From Methylosarcina fibrata AML-C10 (GTDB lineage: Bacteria; Pseudomonadota; Gammaproteobacteria; Methylococcales; Methylomonadaceae), in assembly GCF_000372865.1 (NCBI RefSeq), contig NZ_KB889965.1, positions 3,927,786 through 3,991,785 on the forward strand: a stretch of 64,000 nt of DNA, read 5' to 3'. The notes under the pieces were generated by a model. It was not told the DNA's origin, did not search any database, and worked only from the letters and a program-made list of their open reading frames with translations. A program made the position numbers and the translations under genes. Below are positions 20,833 to 29,268 of the stretch, piece by piece (position 1 is the stretch's first letter; every line of letters starts with the position of its first letter).

Positions 20833-22698
20833 ATGAAAAAAATAATAATGGTTGGCCTGTTGATAATAAGTTCATCAGTAAATTCATACGTTCTAACGGA
20901 ATGGACGAGCGATCCCGGAGGTACGGCCATCGCCAGGGATGCTTCGGACAACGTCTATACGGTGCATGCGGACATCAATCCAGGAAGCGAAATCAATCTG
21001 ACCAAACGCGACTCCGAAGGCAATATCCTCTGGACGGCCACGGCGCCCAACATCGACACCGGTTATGAAGTCGCCAATTGGGTGTCCGTGGATACGGCCG
21101 GGAATGTTGTCGTGACCGGCAAATTGCAGGGAGGAAGTTTCGAAAACCGCACGAATCGTGCCGGGCTGATCCTGAAATTCGACCCGGCGGGAAAGCTGTT
21201 GTGGTCGCAGAATTTCGATGGCATAGACAATGGCTCCTACACTCAAACCCATCGAGTCGACGCCAATAACAGTATCTACGTTCTCGGCGTGGGCAACAGC
21301 GGTATTGCCAAAGTGAGGAAATACACAGCCGATGGGACGTTAATCTGGACCTACGGCACAAGCGGAACGCTGACCTATCCTTATAACCTGAATATCACTC
21401 CGAATAATGACGTTTTGGTCATGACCTCGGCGTCGGCCATTTCGGGGTCCATTGTCTATGCCAAGCTGGATACCAACGGCAATCCGCTGTGGCGCAAATT
21501 ATTAAACAGCCGTAGCTCGGGCTTTGCCGCGGATGATGCGTTCGGCAATACTTTTCTGGTTCATATGGAATACGGCGTAACCGACGAAGGCACCGTCATA
21601 AAAAAGATCTCGCCGACTGGAACGGTTATTTGGGAAACGATCCGTAAAAGGATGATTTCGCCTTTCGTCGGCGTCGGCAGCGACAACAATCCGGTCGTGA
21701 GCGGGCTTAATACGGGAGTGGGAGCCGCGTTTGCAAAATACGACAGCGATGGCAACGAGCTTTGGGAGAATCTCGACGCGGACGGCGCGTCCATTGTTTT
21801 GCAGCAATGGTCGCCCACGCAAATGGACGAGCAGAATAATGCCTATGTGCAAGGTTTTGGCGCATTGTGCAAAGTCAATAGCGACGGTACGTCCGCGTGG
21901 ACCACAGACAGCAGCAGCAATGATGCGGGATTTTCCGTCGGCAACGATCAGAGCGTTTATACGGTAGGGGCAACCACGGCCAAATTAGTCGAAATACCCG
22001 GTTCGGCGCCCTCGGCGGATCTGGTGTTGAGTCTGAGCGTTACGCCAGGTTCGGCGATGACCGGAGAAACCATCAGCTACCAGGCGACCGTGACCAACAA
22101 TGGCCCATCTTCCGCTACGGGCGTGACCGTTACCGGTTCGGTATCGTCCATGACGTCCTGCAGCATCGGCGCGCTTTCATCAGGCGCTAGCGCGAGCTGT
22201 ACTCTTACCGAGACCGCTTCGACAGCCGGTACGTTCTCCCGTACGGTGACCGTCAGCGGTAACGAGACCGATCCCGTTTTCACCAACAACAGAATCGAGA
22301 CCTTCATTACCGTCGTTGCCGCGTCATCCGGCGCCGATCTGGCTTTGACGATGACCGACGCTCCGGATCCGGTCAGGAGAGGCGCCAACCTGGTGTATAC
22401 GCTGACGGTACAGAACAACGGACCGAGCCAGGCGGGCAATGTTTCACTGAGCGACGTGTTACCGGCCAACGTCACCCTGGTCGGCGCCGTTCCTGCGCAA
22501 GGCACCTGCACCGGCAGCGCCACGGTCAACTGCACTTTGGGGACCTTGAACAACGGCGCCAAAACAACGGTAAAAATTACCGTCCGGCCCAGAGTAACCG
22601 GCACGATCAGTAACAGTGCCAGCGTCGGCAGCGCATCGGTCACCGATCCCAACTCGGCCAACAATAGCGCAACGGCTACGACCACAGTCAGAAGGTAA
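20833..22698 (+). CDS. Exported SBBP-like propeller protein with two DUF11 domains
   Basis: A 621-residue protein with a short signal peptide (MKKIIMVGLLIISSSVNSYV). Residues about 20-390 are a repetitive beta-propeller-like region with repeated patterns such as LTKRDSEGNILWT, LKFDPAGKLLWSQ and YDSDGNELWE, typical of SBBP/PQQ-like surface repeats. Two DUF11 immunoglobulin-like domains follow, starting near 397 (SADLVLSLSVTPGSAMTGE) and 500 (GADLALTMTDAPDPVRRG), both with the TNNGPS or QNNGPS signature. The protein is probably at the cell surface or in the matrix. It lacks a visible C-terminal sorting signal. Function beyond that is unknown. Confidence 0.8.
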   Translation: MKKIIMVGLLIISSSVNSYVLTEWTSDPGGTAIARDASDNVYTVHADINPGSEINLTKRDSEGNILWTATAPNIDTGYEVANWVSVDTAGNVVVTGKLQGGSFENRTNRAGLILKFDPAGKLLWSQNFDGIDNGSYTQTHRVDANNSIYVLGVGNSGIAKVRKYTADGTLIWTYGTSGTLTYPYNLNITPNNDVLVMTSASAISGSIVYAKLDTNGNPLWRKLLNSRSSGFAADDAFGNTFLVHMEYGVTDEGTVIKKISPTGTVIWETIRKRMISPFVGVGSDNNPVVSGLNTGVGAAFAKYDSDGNELWENLDADGASIVLQQWSPTQMDEQNNAYVQGFGALCKVNSDGTSAWTTDSSSNDAGFSVGNDQSVYTVGATTAKLVEIPGSAPSADLVLSLSVTPGSAMTGETISYQATVTNNGPSSATGVTVTGSVSSMTSCSIGALSSGASASCTLTETASTAGTFSRTVTVSGNETDPVFTNNRIETFITVVAASSGADLALTMTDAPDPVRRGANLVYTLTVQNNGPSQAGNVSLSDVLPANVTLVGAVPAQGTCTGSATVNCTLGTLNNGAKTTVKITVRPRVTGTISNSASVGSASVTDPNSANNSATATTTVRR

Positions 22699-22710
22699 CG
22701 GCAGTGCAAT

Positions 22711-22754
22711 AAGCGGCATCGGCTTTCTGACGGATCATCGAAAAAGCCGCTTTT
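22711..22754 (+). terminator. Terminator after the DUF11 protein gene
   Basis: AAGCGGC (22711-22717) pairs with GCCGCTT (22746-22752), and TTTT continues through 22754. An alternative inner stem (GGCTTT with AAAGCC) is possible. It lies 12 bases after the stop codon. Confidence 0.5.
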
Positions 22755-22978
22755 GATTATTGCGGTTAAATCGGATTCCGGGATTAACCCGCGGAGTACG
22801 GAATAGCATCCGCGCGTATTGTGCCGTATGATTGAACTCCATTCGGTGCAGTACGCGACCAGTCTATCAGGATTACGATCCCTATGCGCCGAAAAGTCGA
22901 ATGCGGACGGTTACGATTGAGTGCAAGAAAACAATTTGCTACTGTGCCTGTCATTGACCTCACCCACGGGATTTTATT

Positions 22979-23261
22979 ATGATCGGCACCATTACCGCAT
23001 TCCTGATCACCTACCGGTTTTCCAAAAGCGCCAAAGCGACCGGCAAGGACCCGTTGTTTTCGGCTATCCTGGATTTTCTGGCTTATCTGGTTCCCTGCCT
23101 CGCCTGAACCCTTATCGTCACCCCGGGCCTTGCTCGATGCAGTCGAACACGATCCCGGCATCCTGTCCGGCTTGTTCGTCAATTACGCTGATATTCTGGT
23201 GGGCATCGCCTGCGCCATCGGGATTAAATTGATGCATTTCAAGCGGGTTAAAACGGAGTAG
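22979..23261 (+). pseudogene. Broken copy of a 93-residue membrane protein gene
   Basis: This is a clear duplicate of the intact gene at 24895-25176, including about 90 bases upstream (homology begins near 22880). It has two lesions: an in-frame TGA at 23105-23107 where the intact copy has TGG, and a one-base insertion near 23130 (CCTTGCTCGATG versus CCTTCGCGATG) that shifts the remaining frame. The start and last third are otherwise nearly identical. The total length of 283 bases against 282 agrees with a single insertion. Confidence 0.85.
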
Positions 23262-23277
23262 AAATTTGCATAGGCTG

Positions 23278-23355
23278 TAGGTTGGGTTGGCGAAGACAAC
23301 CCAACAAATCGGAGCAGGAATGTTGGGTTGCCAAAAAACAGGCAACCCAACCTAC
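23278..23355. repeat. REP-like palindromic repeat (double unit)
   Basis: GTAGGTTGGGTT (23278-23289) and AACCCAACCTAC (23344-23355) are inverted. Inside them TTGGGTTG and CAACCCAA recur, so the element can fold as one long or two short hairpins. The same core appears at 24026, 25200 and, degraded, near 25680. Confidence 0.7.
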
Positions 23356-23471
23356 GGTGCTTGACCTGAACGCCAGGCAAGGTGTATGGTCCGAAGCCGA
23401 AGCTTTTCGTTTGCTGACTTCAGGAAATCTTCGAATATACCTAAATTTCCATTAGAAAAAGGAGACAGATC

Positions 23472-23918
23472 ATGAGTTTGTTCGACTTTGTCAGTAATAT
23501 CGGGACCAAACTGTTTGGCGACGAAAATGACGCCCCTGCTGCAATTAAAAAACGGATTGATGAAGATAACCCGGGCCTGGAGAATTTTCAGGTGCAAGTG
23601 AAGGATGGGCGCGCCGTCTTGAGCGGCACCGCGAAATCCGCCGAAGCTCTGGAGAAAGCGGTGCTGATCGTGGGGAATACCCAGGGCATCGAAAAAATCA
23701 ATATCGATGCCGTCACTGTCGCGGACGGAGGCAAAATCGGGAGCGACGATGAATTTTATACGATCGAAAAAGGCGATACGCTGTGGAAAGTCGCCGAAAA
23801 AGCATACGGAAACGGCGCCCAGTATCAAAAAATCTTCGAAGCAAATCGCGAAGTGATCAAAGACGCGGATAAAATCTTTCCGGGCCAAAAAATCCGTATT
23901 CCTAAAAATATCCAATGA
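23472..23918 (+). CDS. kbp: BON-LysM domain protein (YgaU/Kbp family)
   Basis: A 148-residue protein, the same length as E. coli YgaU (Kbp, 149 residues). A BON domain occupies about 25-90 (VQVKDGRAVLSGTAKSAEALEKAV), followed by a LysM domain at about 97-146 (YTIEKGDTLWKVAEKAYGNGAQY, ending in PGQKIRIP). In E. coli the protein is a cytoplasmic potassium-binding protein induced under osmotic or envelope stress. AAAAAGGAGACAG gives a strong ribosome binding site. A decayed copy of this gene lies at 24607-24702. Confidence 0.9.
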   Translation: MSLFDFVSNIGTKLFGDENDAPAAIKKRIDEDNPGLENFQVQVKDGRAVLSGTAKSAEALEKAVLIVGNTQGIEKINIDAVTVADGGKIGSDDEFYTIEKGDTLWKVAEKAYGNGAQYQKIFEANREVIKDADKIFPGQKIRIPKNIQ

Positions 23919-24025
23919 AAGACTGATAGGTTAGTCAACCGCTTGCCGGCGACTGCTTCTTAGTTCGTAGCCTCTCGGGGCGATATCCATGCAGTTGTCG
24001 TTAACCGAATATATTGCAAGATGAG

Positions 24026-24056
24026 TGTTGGGTTGCGAAAAGCATGCAACCCAACC
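24026..24056. repeat. REP-like palindrome
   Basis: TGTTGGGTTGC (24026-24036) and GCAACCCAACC (24046-24056) form a hairpin of the family seen at 23278 and 25200. It lies downstream of the kbp gene. Confidence 0.65.
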
Positions 24057-24156
24057 TTGTATCTACGCAGTTTATAGAGTTTTTGAGCAGGCTCTTCGAC
24101 AAGCTCGGCGTAAGGTAAATTTATGGCTGGGATTAATAGCCTGTAAATCTTTATCT

Positions 24157-24465
24157 TTAGGAAAAAAATGATTTCACGGAAGACGTAAAATTGTCCCAGC
24201 CTTTTTCTAATTTGGCTGAAGCTTCATCCCAACCTTCCTCTAGGGAATCTTTTACATCATCCCATTTATCATCCGCGGTGTCGGCAACTTCCTGTGCTTT
24301 CGCTTTGGCTTGCTCGAGTTTGGGTTCCAAATCATCAATAGCCGCGCGAATATCGCTCATCCTTTCCTCTGATTCGTCCTTTACTTTATCTTTCAGCGCG
24401 GACAGCTGTGCTTGCCGTTCATCAATGGAGGATTGGATTTTAGAAAGCAGTTCATCTTTGGTCAT
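24157..24465 (-). CDS. Small acidic coiled-coil protein
   Basis: A 102-residue helical protein without a signal peptide. It is rich in Asp, Glu, Lys and Ala, with heptad-like spacing and repeated Trp-Asp motifs in the C-terminal half (DDKWDDVKDSLEEGWDEASAKLEKGW). It resembles small coiled-coil proteins found near stress genes, but no family is certain. A GGAG site sits 8 bases before the ATG at 24465 and only 2 bases before the ATG at 24471, so the second start is preferred. Confidence 0.7.
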   Translation of the reverse strand: MTKDELLSKIQSSIDERQAQLSALKDKVKDESEERMSDIRAAIDDLEPKLEQAKAKAQEVADTADDKWDDVKDSLEEGWDEASAKLEKGWDNFTSSVKSFFS

Positions 24466-24606
24466 CGTCATATCTCCGGAAAGTAGGCTTGAGAGAGCAT
24501 AACTATCAATTCGGTATCAAAAATTGATCATGGATAAATTCCACAAATTAACGACTTTGAGCTCGTGTAATAGTTCATTGGAGTACCAAAGATTTAATGT
24601 TTAGGT

Positions 24607-24702
24607 CATGGAAAAAATTCATATCAATGACGTTACTGTCGCGAATGGCAGCAAAACCCGGGCAACGTGAGTTTGATACAATCAAGAAAGACGATACGTA
24701 AT
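24607..24702 (+). pseudogene. Remnant of a second kbp (BON-LysM) gene
   Basis: This segment aligns with bases about 23687-23782 of the intact kbp gene: GAAAAAAT-CATATC-ATGA--TACTGTCGCG is shared with interruptions, and the end reads GATACAATCAAGAAAGACGATACG against GATACGATCGAAAAAGGCGATACG. Translation shows EKI-HIN-VTVANG and DTIKKDDT with frame breaks and a stop right after. Only the junction between the BON and LysM domains survives. Confidence 0.7.
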
Positions 24703-24894
24703 TTATAGGCTAGTTTGGCGAGGCCCCTCAAGCCAGTCAATGCAACAGAGTAGGGGATTGCCGAAAGTGGACAAACAACCTAAACAGCTATGCAGCCGAT
24801 ACGCTGAAAAGTCGAATGCGGACGTTGCGCTTGAGTGCAAGAAAACAATTTGCTACTGTGCCGCTGCCACTCACCTCACCCACGGGATTTTATT

Positions 24895-25176
24895 ATGATC
24901 GGCACCATTACCGCATTCCTGATCACCTACCGGTTTTCCAAAAGCGCCAAAGCGACCGGAAAGGACCCGTTGTCTTCGGCTATCCTGGGTTTTCTGGCCT
25001 ATCTGGTTCCCTGCCTTGCCTGGACCCTTGCCGTCACTCCGGGCCTTCGCGATGCGGTGGAACACGATCCCGGCACCCTGTCCGGCTTGTTCGTCAATTA
25101 CGCTGATATTCTGGTGGGCATCGCCTGCGCCATCGGGATTAAATTGATGCATTTCAAGCGGGTTAAAACGGAGTAG
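24895..25176 (+). CDS. Small membrane protein, intact paralogue of 22979
   Basis: A 93-residue protein starting at ATG 24895 with three likely membrane segments: near 4-14 (short), about 32-50 (AILGFLAYLVPCLAWTLAV) and about 68-83 (YADILVGIACAIGIKLM), and a basic end (HFKRVKTE). The duplicated upstream sequence and the ATG are conserved with the broken copy, supporting this start over the longer frame from 24835. Function is unknown. It ends just before the REP-like hairpin at 25200. Confidence 0.7.
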   Translation: MIGTITAFLITYRFSKSAKATGKDPLSSAILGFLAYLVPCLAWTLAVTPGLRDAVEHDPGTLSGLFVNYADILVGIACAIGIKLMHFKRVKTE

Positions 25177-25199
25177 AAATTTGCATAGGCTGTAGATTT

Positions 25200-25237
25200 G
25201 TAGGTTGGGTTGCCAAAAAGCAGGCAACCCAACCTAC
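25200..25237. repeat. REP-like palindrome, perfect 15-bp arms
   Basis: GTAGGTTGGGTTGCC (25200-25214) and GGCAACCCAACCTAC (25223-25237) form a perfect 15-bp stem with an 8-base loop. It lies between convergent genes and may also serve as a bidirectional terminator. Confidence 0.8.
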
Positions 25238-25270
25238 GCGGCTATTTTCGACGCGGGTAAAAGCTGCCTG

Positions 25271-25603
25271 TCATTTTTTCTTATAAAAATTATTGGTATA
25301 GCAGGACATCAGCGCCCCCCTGACCAAGGTAATATCATCCTGCTGATAGATCCGGCTGCCCTTATCGCTCAGAGTCGGCATGAGATTTTTGGTTTCGTCG
25401 GAAATATCGCCATCGCCGAACACCTCATCTGCCACGCAACTACAGTAAGCGCTAGCCTGATCTATAGGACGTGAGGTACTCTCCTGTTGTACACAACCAT
25501 TGATGAAAACTGATTTAACCCCGGCAGCCTCGCCATTCCCGCCGCCGCATCCCGCCAGACCGATAAATAGCACCGTTAAAAACCTCAAAATTTGTTTGTT
25601 CAT
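25271..25603 (-). CDS. Small lipoprotein of unknown function
   Basis: A 110-residue protein with a signal peptide and a clear lipobox (GLAGC, Cys19), followed by a Gly-rich linker and a domain with four further cysteines (INGCVQQ, YCSCVADEV, LMSCYTN) that could form disulfides in the periplasm. The spacing of CSC-V and the closing C suggests a small compact domain. It is a single gene between the REP-like palindrome and the AT-rich operon. Confidence 0.7.
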   Translation of the reverse strand: MNKQILRFLTVLFIGLAGCGGGNGEAAGVKSVFINGCVQQESTSRPIDQASAYCSCVADEVFGDGDISDETKNLMPTLSDKGSRIYQQDDITLVRGALMSCYTNNFYKKK

Positions 25604-25678
25604 TTTTATTTCTTATTATCGATTAAAGTTATGGAACTATTTTATTTATCAAAACGTAAAGCGCGGCCGATCAATTCT

Positions 25679-25735
25679 CAGGTCGGTTTGGCAAAGACAA
25701 CTTAATAACGGAAGCTGACAACCCAACCTTTGGTG
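25679..25735. repeat. Degraded REP-like element
   Basis: GGTCGGTTTGGCAAAGACAACTT near 25680 and CAACCCAACCTTTGGTGC near 25718 resemble the two-hairpin arrangement at 23278 with several mismatches. Its end, GGTGC, matches the sequence following the 23278 element. Confidence 0.4.
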
Positions 25736-25753
25736 CTACGATATTTAGCAGAG

Positions 25754-26320
25754 TCAAAATATTGATTTAATAATTCGAGGCTCGCATAAGTATTGCCCAG
25801 AATTATTAGACCAGCGAAGTGATGAATATCCACCTAAAAGCCTATGTCCAATCCATCGGTTATCAATAATTTCAAGGTCTTTTTTATTAACCAATAATAG
25901 TCTTCCCATAAACTCTATCCATTGCTTAGGAGAAATTAGAGTTGTTGAATAAGCGTGTAATGATCTACCGCTATCATAAAAAGCCATGTTTTTAAATATA
26001 TTTATTGGTAACAATTTTTTTAATCTATAAATTGTATCAGCCGTTAATGAGTCTTCAATTGAAAAATCAATCATCGGTATGTGCATGAAGCGTCCATTTA
26101 CATGCACTTTAGAATGTATAGCTAGTTCTTGATCACTGTTAAGTGAATTGATTAATTTGGCAATATATTCCTCAGAAAGATTGTCAGAAACAATATCGAT
26201 GTATTCTCTCTCGTCGAAAAGAGAGTCTGGCTTATATATATATTTGCTAAGTTGAAAAACTATGTTTTTTTTGTCTCTTAATTTTTCAACAAAAAAATAT
26301 GGGTGATCTTTATTAATCAA
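25754..26320 (-). CDS. Protein with archaeo-eukaryotic primase-like motifs
   Basis: A 188-residue protein with a TTG start that overlaps the stop of the dGTPase-like gene (TTGA), so the two are translationally coupled. Motifs resemble the AEP primase core: an Asp in a hydrophobic strand (PMIDFS, D85), an s-x-H motif (SGRSLHAY, H122), and a late region DNRWIGHRLLGGYSSLRWS (D153) reminiscent of the D-x-R...G-S-x-R of AEP enzymes. The first acidic motif has only one clear Asp, so polymerase activity is uncertain. It is far smaller than a full primase and has no helicase. The gene is AT-rich like its two partners. The identification is inference and needs a profile search. Confidence 0.5.
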   Translation of the reverse strand: MINKDHPYFFVEKLRDKKNIVFQLSKYIYKPDSLFDEREYIDIVSDNLSEEYIAKLINSLNSDQELAIHSKVHVNGRFMHIPMIDFSIEDSLTADTIYRLKKLLPINIFKNMAFYDSGRSLHAYSTTLISPKQWIEFMGRLLLVNKKDLEIIDNRWIGHRLLGGYSSLRWSNNSGQYLCEPRIIKSIF

Positions 26321-27633
26321 TGAATTCTAATTCCTTCAAGAATTTGATATGTTTCCAGTGCAAAATCGTCCGTCATTCCAGATATATAGTCTACAATTAA
26401 ATGCGCGCGCCTCGTTGCCTCACAGCCAGCCTTTGATTTATATTTTTTGATATAATTTGGAGGAATTCGACGCAGTAATCTTATATGGTAATCTAAATGA
26501 TGTTTTGTTATTAAATTAGCATCGCCATTTACTAAAGCATTAAAATGATTTTCTTCCAAATCCAATAATATTCCAAAATGCTTTAATAACCCTGTTATTA
26601 CGCTCCTACCCGCAAGCTCCACCTGTTCTGCAGAAATATGCGAGTATATATTCTTCCTTGCATAACTTTTGACTTCTTTGATCAGTCCACCTACTTCTGA
26701 TGTTTCTGGTAATAGATTTACTTTTTCACCATCGAAGATTTCTTCCATCTGATTTATAAAGCTTTCAGAAACAACCCCAACAGCATCTGTAATTGTTTTT
26801 GTCTTAAATGCGATAAATGGATCAATATACGAAGAATTCATATCGATACTCTTAAATTTGATTTTTAATTGCTCCAAAGAAACAATATTCTTTTCTAAGC
26901 CATCTTCAAGATCACTCATTGAATAGGCGATATCATCTGCAGCATCCATTAAATACATTAATGGAAATTTATTTTTAGAACTCCAACTTAATTTCTCGCA
27001 TGCCTGCAGATAGTAATTGTATTCGCTCTTAAATAAACCAATTTTTTTGATCTCGGGGTCATTTTTTTTATCTTCGCTGATATAAGGATACTTAACCATA
27101 GACAACAGCAAAGTACATGTTAGATTAAATCCATATTCATCAGCTCCACTAAGAAATGATGCAAGACGAAAACCTTGTGGATTACCATCAAAATTTATTA
27201 AATCATCTGGAACAGTTTCGCTATTCTTTTCTCTATCTTTAAACCAATCTCGAATAGCTGACTCGCCAAAGTGACCAAATGGAGGATTACCTATGTCATG
27301 CAATAAACAAGCGGTTTCGATAGTATTTACAAAAGCGGCTAATTGCTTGTAATTAGAAGAGTCAAAAGCATCTAATTTCTCGATTATCTTTTGACAAATA
27401 TAACGACCAATTTGACTTACTTCTATCGAATGCGTCAACCTGGTTCTGACTGCGGCGTTCGGCTCTAAAGGAAAAACTTGTGCTTTTTGTTGCAACCTAC
27501 GAAAAGCTGGAGAGTTAACAACTCTTCCTTTATCACTTTCAGAAGCTATTAATATTCCTGGCCTTCCACTAGTTGAAGTCCTTAAACGATCTTCTTTAAG
27601 CAAAGCTAATAGTCTTTCAAAATTTGAATTCAT
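26317..27633 (-). CDS. dGTPase-like HD-domain triphosphohydrolase
   Basis: A 438-residue protein of the dGTPase family. Conserved positions: RLQQKAQVFPLE and RTRLTHSIEV (H68), the HD pair in LLHDIGNPPFGHFGE (H112, D113, H121), and a later acidic motif MDAADDIAYSMSDLEDG. Family enzymes hydrolyse dNTPs, chiefly dGTP, to the nucleoside and triphosphate, and some act in phage defence by depleting dNTPs. It is the middle gene of a leftward operon: the yfbR-like gene ends 16 bases upstream, and the primase-like gene overlaps its 3' end. GC content is much lower than in the flanking regions, suggesting acquisition. Confidence 0.88.
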   Translation of the reverse strand: MNSNFERLLALLKEDRLRTSTSGRPGILIASESDKGRVVNSPAFRRLQQKAQVFPLEPNAAVRTRLTHSIEVSQIGRYICQKIIEKLDAFDSSNYKQLAAFVNTIETACLLHDIGNPPFGHFGESAIRDWFKDREKNSETVPDDLINFDGNPQGFRLASFLSGADEYGFNLTCTLLLSMVKYPYISEDKKNDPEIKKIGLFKSEYNYYLQACEKLSWSSKNKFPLMYLMDAADDIAYSMSDLEDGLEKNIVSLEQLKIKFKSIDMNSSYIDPFIAFKTKTITDAVGVVSESFINQMEEIFDGEKVNLLPETSEVGGLIKEVKSYARKNIYSHISAEQVELAGRSVITGLLKHFGILLDLEENHFNALVNGDANLITKHHLDYHIRLLRRIPPNYIKKYKSKAGCEATRRAHLIVDYISGMTDDFALETYQILEGIRIH

Positions 27634-27649
27634 ATTCTTTAATTGTTCC

Positions 27650-28246
27650 CTACTTAACTAGGTCGTCGAGTGTCAATTCGCAATCTGGCGCAAAGGTCTG
27701 CATAAAAAACAATACTTCTGGCTGTTCAACCATACTGAATATTATTTTTTCAAGCTGCTTGGTTGCAACTTCAAACTCAGTGTTACCAGCTTTTAGTTCT
27801 GCCTGACATTTTAAATAAGCTGAGATTTTATCTGCAGCTTTGATAATTTGTTGTAGCTCTATTGGTAAATGTTCGTGATCAAGCAATTGCCGGTAATCTT
27901 CTTTTAGATCTTTAGGAAGTATACTTAATAATGTCTGTTCAGCTTGATGTTCGATCTGCTTATAAGCATCAAGAATCGCCGATGAATGATATTTAATAGG
28001 AGTTGGCAAATCTCCGGTAATAACTTCGGTGACATCATGATATAAAGCTGCCGTTGCAATGGCATTTGCATCAACTTGACCATCAAAATAACGATTTTTA
28101 ATGAGCGCCAAGGCGTGCGCAATTACAGCGACATCCCAACTATGCTCCATTACGTTCTCTTCGTGCGCATTACGCATTAGGCCCCAACGTTTAATCCATT
28201 TCAGCCGTGAAAGATAGGCATAAAAGCTACTAGTACTATCAGTCAT
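27650..28246 (-). CDS. yfbR: 5'-deoxynucleotidase, YfbR family
   Basis: A 198-residue HD-domain protein that aligns over its whole length with E. coli YfbR (199 residues). Shared features include FxAxLSRLKxIxRWxLMRN, the metal ligands H35 (EHS), H70/D71 (YHDVTEV), the motif TGDLPTPIKYH, and AADKISAYLKC. E. coli YfbR removes the 5' phosphate from deoxynucleoside monophosphates. As first gene of the operon it would work with the dGTPase-like enzyme to drain the dNTP/dNMP pools, or salvage nucleosides. The codon use is AT-rich like its neighbours. Confidence 0.88.
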   Translation of the reverse strand: MTDSTSSFYAYLSRLKWIKRWGLMRNAHEENVMEHSWDVAVIAHALALIKNRYFDGQVDANAIATAALYHDVTEVITGDLPTPIKYHSSAILDAYKQIEHQAEQTLLSILPKDLKEDYRQLLDHEHLPIELQQIIKAADKISAYLKCQAELKAGNTEFEVATKQLEKIIFSMVEQPEVLFFMQTFAPDCELTLDDLVK

Positions 28247-28405
28247 TAGAGTTTTATCTATAATTTGCAGTTACTTTTAGTCTGTAGGATTTGCTAAATT
28301 TCTGCAAATCAAGATGAAGCGTTGCATTATCTTATTTATTTTTGATCATGACCGCCGATGATTTTCTTTGGAAAACTTAACAATCGTACATAGTTAAAGT
28401 TAGGC

Positions 28406-28437
28406 TGAAAAAGCCTATTCCTTGCGATAATAGGCTT
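28406..28437 (-). terminator. Intrinsic terminator of the fhc operon
   Basis: On the minus strand AAGCCTATT and AATAGGCTT pair over 9 bp with a 9-base loop and run directly into TTTTT. It lies 19 bases beyond the fhcC stop codon. A second small hairpin (AGGCT with AGCCT) follows. Confidence 0.8.
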
Positions 28438-28455
28438 CATGAATGAGATCTTTTT

Positions 28456-29268
28456 CTACAATTTGACCAACACCTCACCTCGCCCCATCTCCGCCATATC
28501 CCCAGCATAGCGCCGCACGCGATTAAATCCAGCCGCTGTATCGGCAAAGCGCGAGTTCAGGCTTTTGAACGAAGCGAAAAGCATCGGCAAAAATCCCAAC
28601 GTATGCGCGCCGCAGTCGTTGAAGCTGGCTGGAAACTGCGGCGGGTTCCACAAGAGCAGGGTGCCGCGGCGCATCGCGTAGCCGAGGTAGCGGCCGGTCT
28701 GGCCCATGACGGCGATGGTGCCGGCGGTCATTCTGGAACCGCAGTAGTCGCCGGCGTTGCCTTCGATCAGGATCGTGCCGCGGCGCATGTGGTCGCCGAC
28801 GCGCTCGCCGACATTGCCCCGGACCAGGATCAGCCCGCCTTTCATGCCCATTTTGTTGCCGGGCAAGGCGCCGCCGAGAAAGTCGCCGGCGTCGCCATCG
28901 ATTTCGAGCGTGCCTTTTTTCATTTCGCAGGCGGCGTAGAGGCCGGCATTGCCGGTAACGCGGATATTGCCGGCCTTCATGCCCATGCCGAGATAGGCGC
29001 CGGCGTCGCCTTCGACTTTAATGCGGCCGCCGTTCAGCTCCTTGCCGATGAAGTCGAGCTTGCCGAAGCTGTTTTTGATCACGATGTTCTGAGCATCCCC
29101 GCCGGTTATGCTGAACAGCGCATCGACGCGCAGTCTGACCTTGCCGGATTGCAGTTCGAGCGCCGCGATTTCGGAAATTTCCTTGCCTTCGAGGTTCTGG
29201 CAGACCAGAGGCGACAGATCGACGCGCTGGTCGGGACGGTGTTTCAACGTAAACGTCAATGCGCTCAT
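28456..29268 (-). CDS. fhcC: Formyltransferase/hydrolase complex subunit C
   Basis: A 270-residue protein of the formylmethanofuran dehydrogenase subunit C family. It consists largely of a repetitive glycine-rich beta helix with the recurring pattern AGxxxGxxMxxGxIxVxGxAG (for example GDAGAYLGMGMKAG, GDAGDFLGGALPG, GNAGDYCGSRMTAG), as in the glutamate synthase GXGXG fold. In methylotrophs Fhc hydrolyses the formyl carrier after transfer from tetrahydromethanopterin, releasing formate. Its start overlaps the end of fhcD by 4 bases. Confidence 0.95.
   Translation of the reverse strand: MSALTFTLKHRPDQRVDLSPLVCQNLEGKEISEIAALELQSGKVRLRVDALFSITGGDAQNIVIKNSFGKLDFIGKELNGGRIKVEGDAGAYLGMGMKAGNIRVTGNAGLYAACEMKKGTLEIDGDAGDFLGGALPGNKMGMKGGLILVRGNVGERVGDHMRRGTILIEGNAGDYCGSRMTAGTIAVMGQTGRYLGYAMRRGTLLLWNPPQFPASFNDCGAHTLGFLPMLFASFKSLNSRFADTAAGFNRVRRYAGDMAEMGRGEVLVKL

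What the first reader, a model, noticed from the sequence alone, without database searches (positions are those of the whole stretch)
25754..28246. AT-rich operon: YfbR-type nucleotidase, dGTPase-like enzyme and a primase-like protein
Three leftward, tightly packed genes (16-base gap, then a TTGA overlap) are far more AT-rich than all flanking genes, suggesting acquisition. The first two encode HD enzymes with intact metal motifs that would strip phosphate from dNMPs and triphosphate from dNTPs. The third, 188 residues, shows s-x-H and other motifs like archaeo-eukaryotic primases. Two dNTP-removing enzymes plus a nucleic-acid- or nucleotide-binding partner is a combination I do not know as a described system. 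It could be a nucleotide-depletion phage defence in which the third protein is a sensor, or a dNTP-pool control unit.
Basis: partly seen in the sequence, partly recalled or inferred. Interest (0 to 1): 0.72.

Follow-up and report, generated by a model that had tools for sequence, protein, structure and literature searches.

The report
Mobile dGTPase gene with primase-like partner
A small mobile pair of bacterial genes couples an enzyme that destroys a DNA building block to a small primase-shaped protein that has probably lost normal primase chemistry; it looks like an undescribed relative of known anti-virus systems that starve phages of DNA precursors.

Summary
In detail: three tightly packed leftward genes at 34% GC in a 56% GC window encode a YfbR-type deoxynucleotidase, a dGTPase and a 188-residue protein. 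The primase guess holds for the fold: the third protein passes Pfam PF24387 (AEP-like), and its model aligns with primases (best Z 10.2; all 50 entries shown are AEP-superfamily proteins), although Foldseek alone found nothing significant. The "triad" does not hold: YfbR was found at 0 of 6 other readable loci, and this genome has a second copy. The real unit is the pair dGTPase + AEP-like protein. It occurs at 8 of 8 cellular loci found (dGTPase interrupted in one), mostly with a 4-base overlap, at lower GC than its surroundings (marginally so at one locus), patchily distributed, and next to a known defence system at 2 (BREX, IetAS). The AEP-like protein lacks the second acid of motif I in 9 of 9 sequences, so ordinary primase chemistry is doubtful. 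The closest described system is Clover (dGTPase plus Pol-beta nucleotidyltransferase); this pair is built alike with a different second protein. Most likely it is a nucleotide-depletion phage defence in which the AEP-like protein controls the dGTPase. Function is inferred only.

The parts
25754..26320 (-). AEP-like protein, 188 aa (PF24387); probable nucleotide-binding regulator of the dGTPase
   Evidence: PF24387 152.8 bits, cut-off 27; AlphaFold2 model pLDDT 84, pTM 0.81; VIA-align: the 50 entries shown are all AEP superfamily, top Z 10.2
26317..27633 (-). dGTP triphosphohydrolase (HD domain), 438 aa, complete active site; the only TIGR01353 match in this genome
   Evidence: TIGR01353 311.7 bits, cut-off 152.35; own-genome search 1 match; residues invariant in A5
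26317..26320 (-). TTGA overlap of dGTPase stop and AEP-like start (likely translational coupling)
   Evidence: 4-base overlap at 6 of 8 loci, 1-base overlap at 1, 5-base gap at 1
27650..28246 (-). YfbR-type 5'-deoxynucleotidase, 198 aa; accessory, not a conserved part of the unit
   Evidence: NF003009 280.4 bits, cut-off 122; found at 0 of 6 other readable pair loci; second copy in this genome at G000:C1:3722188-3722814

Best explanation
The unit is a mobile two-gene module: a dGTPase effector and a translationally coupled AEP-fold partner; in this genome a YfbR gene has joined the front of the operon. Most likely it is an anti-phage nucleotide-depletion system. The dGTPase would be held in check, or switched on, by the AEP-like protein, which binds nucleotides or short DNA in its primase pocket and so reads the state of the dNTP pool during phage replication; once released, the dGTPase removes dGTP. 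YfbR, where present, would push depletion further by removing dNMPs. Shown here: families, fold, pairing, overlapping genes, patchy low-GC insertions, complete dGTPase active site, loss of one acidic residue of the primase site. Inferred: defence role, nucleotide binding, direction of control, any role of YfbR.
For: Pair at 8 of 8 cellular loci, always dGTPase first. Overlapping genes at 7 of 8. Identity matrices of the two proteins correlate, r 0.70, Mantel p 0.001 over 8 pairs. The linked dGTPases form one group, 80/87 support. GC below surroundings at 8 of 8, by 1.6 (L014) to 26 points. Rare and patchy: 3 of 398, 3 of 151 over cut-off, 2 of 298 and 1 of 48 genomes, each count including the genome at its centre. 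Next to BREX genes BrxL and PglZ in L006 and IetA/IetS in L015. All 8 linked dGTPases carry the longer stretch before N-L-T that, in CloA, holds contacts to both dTTP and p3diT; 5 of 5 E. coli-type Dgt comparators lack it (CloA alignment; roles from PMC12265719). PADLOC scores the window's dGTPase as 'dGTPase' at 3.9e-69.
Against: At 6 of 8 loci the immediate neighbours tested gave no PADLOC hit (both sides at L007, L009, L037; one side at the window, L008, L014). The group support for the dGTPases is moderate and several branches are long. The longer stretch is also in the Listeria, Phaeobacter and Klebsiella comparators, and the pattern did not match the Nitrosococcus one, so it is not a mark of this system. 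Both nucleotide pockets of CloA are only partly kept in the window enzyme. No direct evidence of interaction, nucleotide binding or phage resistance. Not all bacterial Dgts protect from phage: a passage in PMC12186491 says so.
Confidence: 0.5

Rival explanations
1. The AEP-like protein is a signal maker, a primase-fold counterpart of CloB: it joins two or a few dNTPs into a short oligodeoxynucleotide that binds the dGTPase and keeps it off until phage changes the dNTP pool.
For: Same operon logic as Clover, where CloB makes the inhibitory dinucleotide p3diT (PMC12265719). AEP primases make dinucleotides as their first product (recalled). D85, H122, D153, R155, H159, R160 and R169 are invariant in 9 of 9 sequences.
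Against: The second acidic residue of motif I, which in known AEPs helps hold both metals (PMC8065100, section 7), is S, N, C, G or A in 9 of 9. Of the CloA p3diT contacts, the window equivalents of R34, D37, F41 and N75 differ, and those of Q311 and R314 differ in a weakly aligned part.
Confidence: 0.2
2. The AEP-like protein is a non-catalytic sensor of single-stranded DNA or replication forks that activates the dGTPase directly when phage DNA replicates.
For: Incomplete catalytic site but fully conserved pocket residues. The two best structural matches are RepB' entries, 3h25 being RepB' bound to DNA. Overlapping genes fit a physical complex.
Against: No test of DNA binding. The Z values support a fold, not a function.
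Confidence: 0.2
3. A dNTP-pool or cell-cycle control unit without a defence role.
For: The window dGTPase is the only one found in this genome. One pair lies beside ribonucleotide reductase genes (L009) and one right after polA (L008; polA judged from the sequence). The Caulobacter Dgt FssC acts in the cell cycle and does not affect phage CbK (PMC12186491 title and passages).
Against: Patchy and rare occurrence, lower GC than the surroundings at 8 of 8 loci, and different genomic places. The flank downstream of the neighbouring gene lacks these genes in 11 of 11 relatives looked at, out of 32 with that gene.
Confidence: 0.15
4. The YfbR-dGTPase-AEP triad is itself a functional system and other triads were missed.
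For: In the window the three genes are co-directional with a 16-base gap, and YfbR is also AT-rich (GC 0.39, GC3 0.32).
Against: YfbR was found at 0 of 6 other readable loci, with 2.9-10.5 kb upstream of the dGTPase held; the YfbR relatives fetched from 9 related genomes have no dGTPase in their loci.
Confidence: 0.05

Closest known systems
Clover anti-phage system (CloA dGTPase + CloB nucleotidyltransferase), PMC12265719
   Same: Two-gene operon of an HD-domain dGTPase and a small nucleotidyl-transfer-type protein, found with defence genes; the dGTPase keeps the stretch before N-L-T that in CloA contacts the effectors.
   Different: The partner is AEP fold (PF24387), not Pol-beta with [D/E]h[D/E]..h[D/E]h. 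The p3diT and dTTP pockets are only partly kept. The dGTPases group apart from a Phaeobacter dGTPase that sits beside a Pol-beta-like gene, itself on a long branch.
Stand-alone anti-phage dGTPase (NF041026; PADLOC dGTPase)
   Same: dGTP hydrolysis as the predicted effector; the PADLOC dGTPase model hits at 3.9e-69.
   Different: Scores 192.6 bits against a cut-off of 400 for NF041026; comes with a partner gene at every locus found.
E. coli-type housekeeping Dgt (NF003429)
   Same: Nearest by profile (396.1 bits against a cut-off of 405); best PDB sequence hit 4x9e (E. coli Dgt, recalled); complete active site.
   Different: Forms a separate group; five comparators of this type lack the extra 5-6 residues and have no AEP-like ORF in the 2.5-4 kb flanks held.
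AEP primases and PrimPols (RepB', S-2L PrimPol, PriS, LigD Pol)
   Same: Fold, S-x-H motif II, motif III Asp.
   Different: Second acid of motif I missing in 9 of 9; a 184-212 aa protein on its own, not fused to a helicase, and tied to a dGTPase (one pair does lie after polA).

Membership tests
PF24387 AEP-like (archaeo-eukaryotic primase superfamily) | Curated profile score | tested here: met
   152.8 bits against cut-off 27
PF24387 AEP-like (archaeo-eukaryotic primase superfamily) | AEP fold | tested here: met
   VIA-align Z 10.2 to RepB' 3h20 over 154 residues, rmsd 3.4; the 50 entries shown (of 123 chains with Z 2 or more among 1000) are all AEP superfamily. Foldseek alone gave nothing at E 0.001 or better and no primase in its 50 rows shown. 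Model from 3 sequences; the best of five is used, the others are poor
Catalytic AEP primase/polymerase | Motif I with two acids (D/E-x-D/E) | tested here: not met
   First Asp 9 of 9, second acid 0 of 9
Catalytic AEP primase/polymerase | Motif II S-x-H and motif III Asp | tested here: met
   H122 and D153 invariant in 9 of 9; S or A at the first place of S-x-H (A in L014)
Catalytic AEP primase/polymerase | Nucleotidyl transfer activity | not testable with these tools
   needs purified protein
Clover | Effector is an HD-domain dGTPase with complete active site | tested here: met
   TIGR01353 and residues
Clover | Partner is a Pol-beta-superfamily nucleotidyltransferase (CloB) | tested here: not met
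   Partner is PF24387/AEP fold
Clover | p3diT pocket residues of CloA (R29, R34, R38, D37, F41, N75, N181) | tested here: not met
   By the alignment with 9p8t, taken here to be CloA because its residues fit the paper's numbers with an offset of 2: R38 and N181 kept; R34, D37, F41, N75 changed; R29 falls beside a gap
Clover | dTTP-activated, p3diT-inhibited dGTPase | not testable with these tools
   enzyme assay needed
dGTP triphosphohydrolase (TIGR01353) | Curated score and HD/HE residues | tested here: met
   311.7 vs 152.35 bits; invariant residues
5'-deoxynucleotidase YfbR (NF003009) | Curated score | tested here: met
   280.4 vs 122 bits
Conserved YfbR-dGTPase-AEP triad | YfbR next to the pair in other genomes | tested here: not met
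   0 of 6 readable loci; L006 contig starts inside the dGTPase
Phage defence system | Protects from phage | not testable with these tools
   Genomic context only: 2 of 8 loci beside PADLOC defence genes

The most novel reading that the evidence does not exclude
A primase-fold protein with a single motif I Asp has become a signalling enzyme: it makes a short oligodeoxynucleotide that gates a dGTPase, an independent evolutionary invention of the Clover principle by the archaeo-eukaryotic primase superfamily. A stand-alone copy without any dGTPase, seen in an IMG/VR record, could then be a counter-measure or a decoy.
Probability: 0.17. Interest if true: 0.85.

Novelty: new variant of a known kind. 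Interest (0 to 1): 0.57.

Why it matters
dNTP depletion is a shared antiviral strategy of bacteria and animals (PMC12265719, abstract and opening), and how such dangerous enzymes are kept off in healthy cells has been worked out for Clover. A second, unrelated control protein, drawn from the primase superfamily, would show that this regulation arose more than once. It would also give primase-fold proteins a role outside DNA synthesis. The module is small and its genes overlap, so both steps can be tested directly.

Tried and rejected
Triad as unit: rejected. Pantoea as a second triad: rejected. The annotated 131-aa 'HD domain protein' there is the front part of the same dGTPase, cut by an in-frame stop, not YfbR.

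G441 match (22.9 bits, under the cut-off of 27, no dGTPase found in its locus): dropped before counting. The Bacillus subtilis control 'rings' under the cut-off; I could not see which protein and left it out.

Close PDB relatives by sequence: none for the AEP-like protein, single or as profile. Foldseek against PDB: nothing at E 0.001 or better, best row an unrelated protein; the fold rests on the profile, the motifs and VIA-align. PADLOC and NCBIfam: no family for it (NCBIfam only a salactin row at E 0.11); PHROGs: nothing under E 0.2. Phage collection: no match; plasmids: one record. Genome contigs: one relative, from a single-protein query that reaches close relatives only. A class-level genome search with the seven-sequence alignment gave only the window's own genome, 1 of 369. 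Promoter and terminator scan: 13 promoter-like sites against 12.2 in shuffles, no terminator. No tRNA in the window; no inverted repeats of 25 nt or more at 22500-29000, and no direct repeat there brackets the operon.

Literature: ten searches listed no paper that by title or abstract start is on a dGTPase-AEP pair. I saw listings only, cut at 20 of 53, 20 of 69 and 15 of 180, and the library is open-licence PMC, so absence is weak. Clover paper PMC12265719: parts 1-3 of 8 of the text read. PMC8065100: section 7 whole and passages. PMC12186491, PMC7824862, PMC12839542, PMC10853773: passages only. Other papers: search listings only.

The IMG/VR record L017 as proof of a virus: not accepted. Its sampled stretches are full of one repeated protein family and hold a lipoprotein-like ORF, judged by eye.

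Full report
What is there. On the minus strand at 25754-28246 three genes follow each other: a YfbR-type 5'-deoxynucleotidase (198 aa), a dGTP triphosphohydrolase (438 aa) and a 188-aa protein. The stretch has 34.4% GC in a 55.5% GC window; of 1132 sliding windows of that length outside it none is as low, the lowest being 46.5%. Curated profiles confirm the first two. The third passes Pfam PF24387, 'Archaeo-eukaryotic primase 1D-like', with 152.8 bits against 27. It has no NCBIfam or PADLOC family.

The primase-like fold. An AlphaFold2 model from three sequences has pLDDT 84 and pTM 0.81; the other four models were much poorer (66 to 45). Foldseek alone found nothing at E 0.001 and showed no primase in its 50 rows. 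VIA-align on Foldseek's top 1000 chains ranked RepB' (Z 10.2, 154 residues, rmsd 3.4), archaeal PriS, S-2L PrimPol and human Pri1 first. The 50 entries shown all belong to the AEP superfamily by their titles: primases, PrimPols, poxvirus D5/E5 with primase domain, LigD polymerase and HP0184 (HP0184, 2atz, is counted among AEP structures in PMC8065100; for some others recalled). With the profile hit and the motifs S-x-H (H122) and motif III (D153) this is good evidence for the fold.

Is it a working primase? In S-2L PrimPol two acids of motif I and one of motif III hold the two metals (PMC8065100, section 7). In nine AEP-like sequences (eight cellular, one IMG/VR) the first motif I Asp (D85), H122 and D153 are invariant, but the second acid is S, S, N, C, G, A, S, S, A: never acidic. 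The pocket is kept, the standard two-metal site is not. Nucleotide or DNA binding is therefore likelier than ordinary polymerisation; a changed chemistry is not excluded.

The true unit is a pair. Searches found the AEP-like gene in 3 of 398 genomes sampled from the phylum, in 3 of 151 of the family over the cut-off (4 at E 0.001, one dropped), in 2 of 298 and 1 of 48 in the families of two hits, in 1 of 369 of the class with an alignment query (only the window's genome), in 1 plasmid record and in one metagenome-assembled genome. Counts include the genome at the centre of each search. That makes eight cellular loci: window, L008, L009, L014, L015, L037, L006, L007. At all eight the gene directly follows a dGTPase gene on the same strand. 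In the Pantoea plasmid that dGTPase gene is interrupted by an in-frame stop; in L006 the contig begins inside it. The genes overlap by four bases at six loci and by one base at one; one has a five-base gap. The loci were found through the AEP-like gene, so how often this kind of dGTPase occurs without it was not measured. Among nine dGTPase loci taken from the plasmid and phage collections for comparison, none held an AEP-like ORF in the 2.5-4 kb flanks. The eight linked dGTPases form one group with 80/87 support (the Pantoea row is the rear piece only, L006 is partial, and several comparators have long branches). The two identity matrices correlate (r 0.70, Mantel p 0.001, eight pairs; two close pairs probably drive much of this).

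YfbR is accessory. A search of all held loci found YfbR only in the window's own copies, the second copy of this genome and the loci fetched for it from nine relatives. None lies in L007, L008, L009, L014, L015 or L037, where 2.9 to 10.5 kb upstream of the dGTPase is held. The YfbR gene here is less AT-rich than the pair (GC 39% vs 33%), so it may have a separate history.

Mobility and context. The pair's GC is below that of its surroundings at 8 of 8 loci, by 1.6 points at L014, 6.5 at L006 and 10 to 26 at the others. Downstream of the neighbouring GXGXG-domain gene, probably fhcC (name recalled), 11 relatives fetched of 32 with a match show no dGTPase, AEP-like or YfbR gene in the flank held (about 1.3-1.5 kb, only 0.2 kb in L052). 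Defence genes recognised by PADLOC are direct neighbours at two of eight loci: BrxL and PglZ of BREX in L006, and IetA/IetS in L015. The neighbours tested at the other six gave none: both sides at L007, L009 and L037, one side at the window, L008 and L014. One pair is beside a HigB-like toxin with its helix-turn-helix partner (L014), one beside ribonucleotide reductase genes (L009), and a HipA-like gene is about 4 kb from the pair in L037.

Mechanism. The window dGTPase keeps every catalytic residue and is nearest in profile score to E. coli Dgt. Unlike five E. coli-type comparators it has 5-6 more residues before N-L-T, as do all eight linked enzymes, CloA, and the Listeria, Phaeobacter and Klebsiella comparators; the pattern did not match the Nitrosococcus enzyme. 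In CloA this part includes residues that contact dTTP (Q172) or p3diT (N181) and a loop that moves between the two states (PMC12265719; numbering matched to 9p8t by me with an offset of 2). That fits an allosterically controlled enzyme but does not single out this system. In the window enzyme the p3diT contacts R38 and N181 are kept, and R34, D37, F41 and N75 are changed. Of the dTTP contacts R47 and T449 are kept, Y452 is Phe, and D61, K256 and Q172 are changed (my reading). I conclude that the AEP-like protein most likely controls the dGTPase as a nucleotide- or DNA-responsive partner in a phage-defence module (0.5). A CloB-like signal maker (0.2) and a DNA sensor that activates (0.2) are sharper versions that overlap with this broad statement. 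A pool-control role without defence has 0.15.

Comparison with the known. Clover is the nearest system in logic, but its defining partner is a Pol-beta nucleotidyltransferase and that test fails here. So the module 'works like' Clover perhaps, and is not a member. Pfam already knows the AEP-like family; the listings of ten paper searches, some cut short, showed no description of the pair (see Tried and rejected). I rate it a new variant of a known kind.

Noticed in passing
window 22881-23283 and 24796-25198: A stretch of about 400 nt is duplicated about 1915 nt apart, its pieces 90-95% identical, with related short repeats (GTTGGGTTGCC...) near 24003-24065, 25199 and 25677.
   Followed up: no
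L017 4986-5555 (IMG/VR record, 180.8 kb): AEP-like gene with no TIGR01353 match in the whole record, among arrays of one repeated protein family; 27% GC in the two other stretches sampled. Whether the record is a virus is unclear.
   Followed up: partly
L042 2405-4635 (Phaeobacter plasmid NZ_CP010683.1): dGTPase followed after 8 bases by a 259-aa protein with a G-G-x(n)-D-x-D pattern like Pol-beta nucleotidyltransferases (pattern recalled; no Pfam or PADLOC hit): a likely Clover-type pair.
   Followed up: partly
L033 (Nitrosococcus watsonii plasmid NC_014316.1): A dGTPase gene without AEP partner lies between toxin genes (PemK/MazF and RelE/ParE family) and near a Druantia DruA gene.
   Followed up: no
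L009 and L008: Pairs inserted beside ribonucleotide reductase genes and directly after polA, both nucleotide or DNA synthesis genes; may be chance.
   Followed up: no
L008 10217-11500: A 427-aa protein with several Cys/His clusters, with only a weak rubredoxin match in Pfam and none in PADLOC, faces the pair.
   Followed up: no
G000:C1:3722188-3722814 (L010 7189-7815): Second YfbR gene of this genome, 52% GC over the matched part, probably the housekeeping copy.
   Followed up: partly
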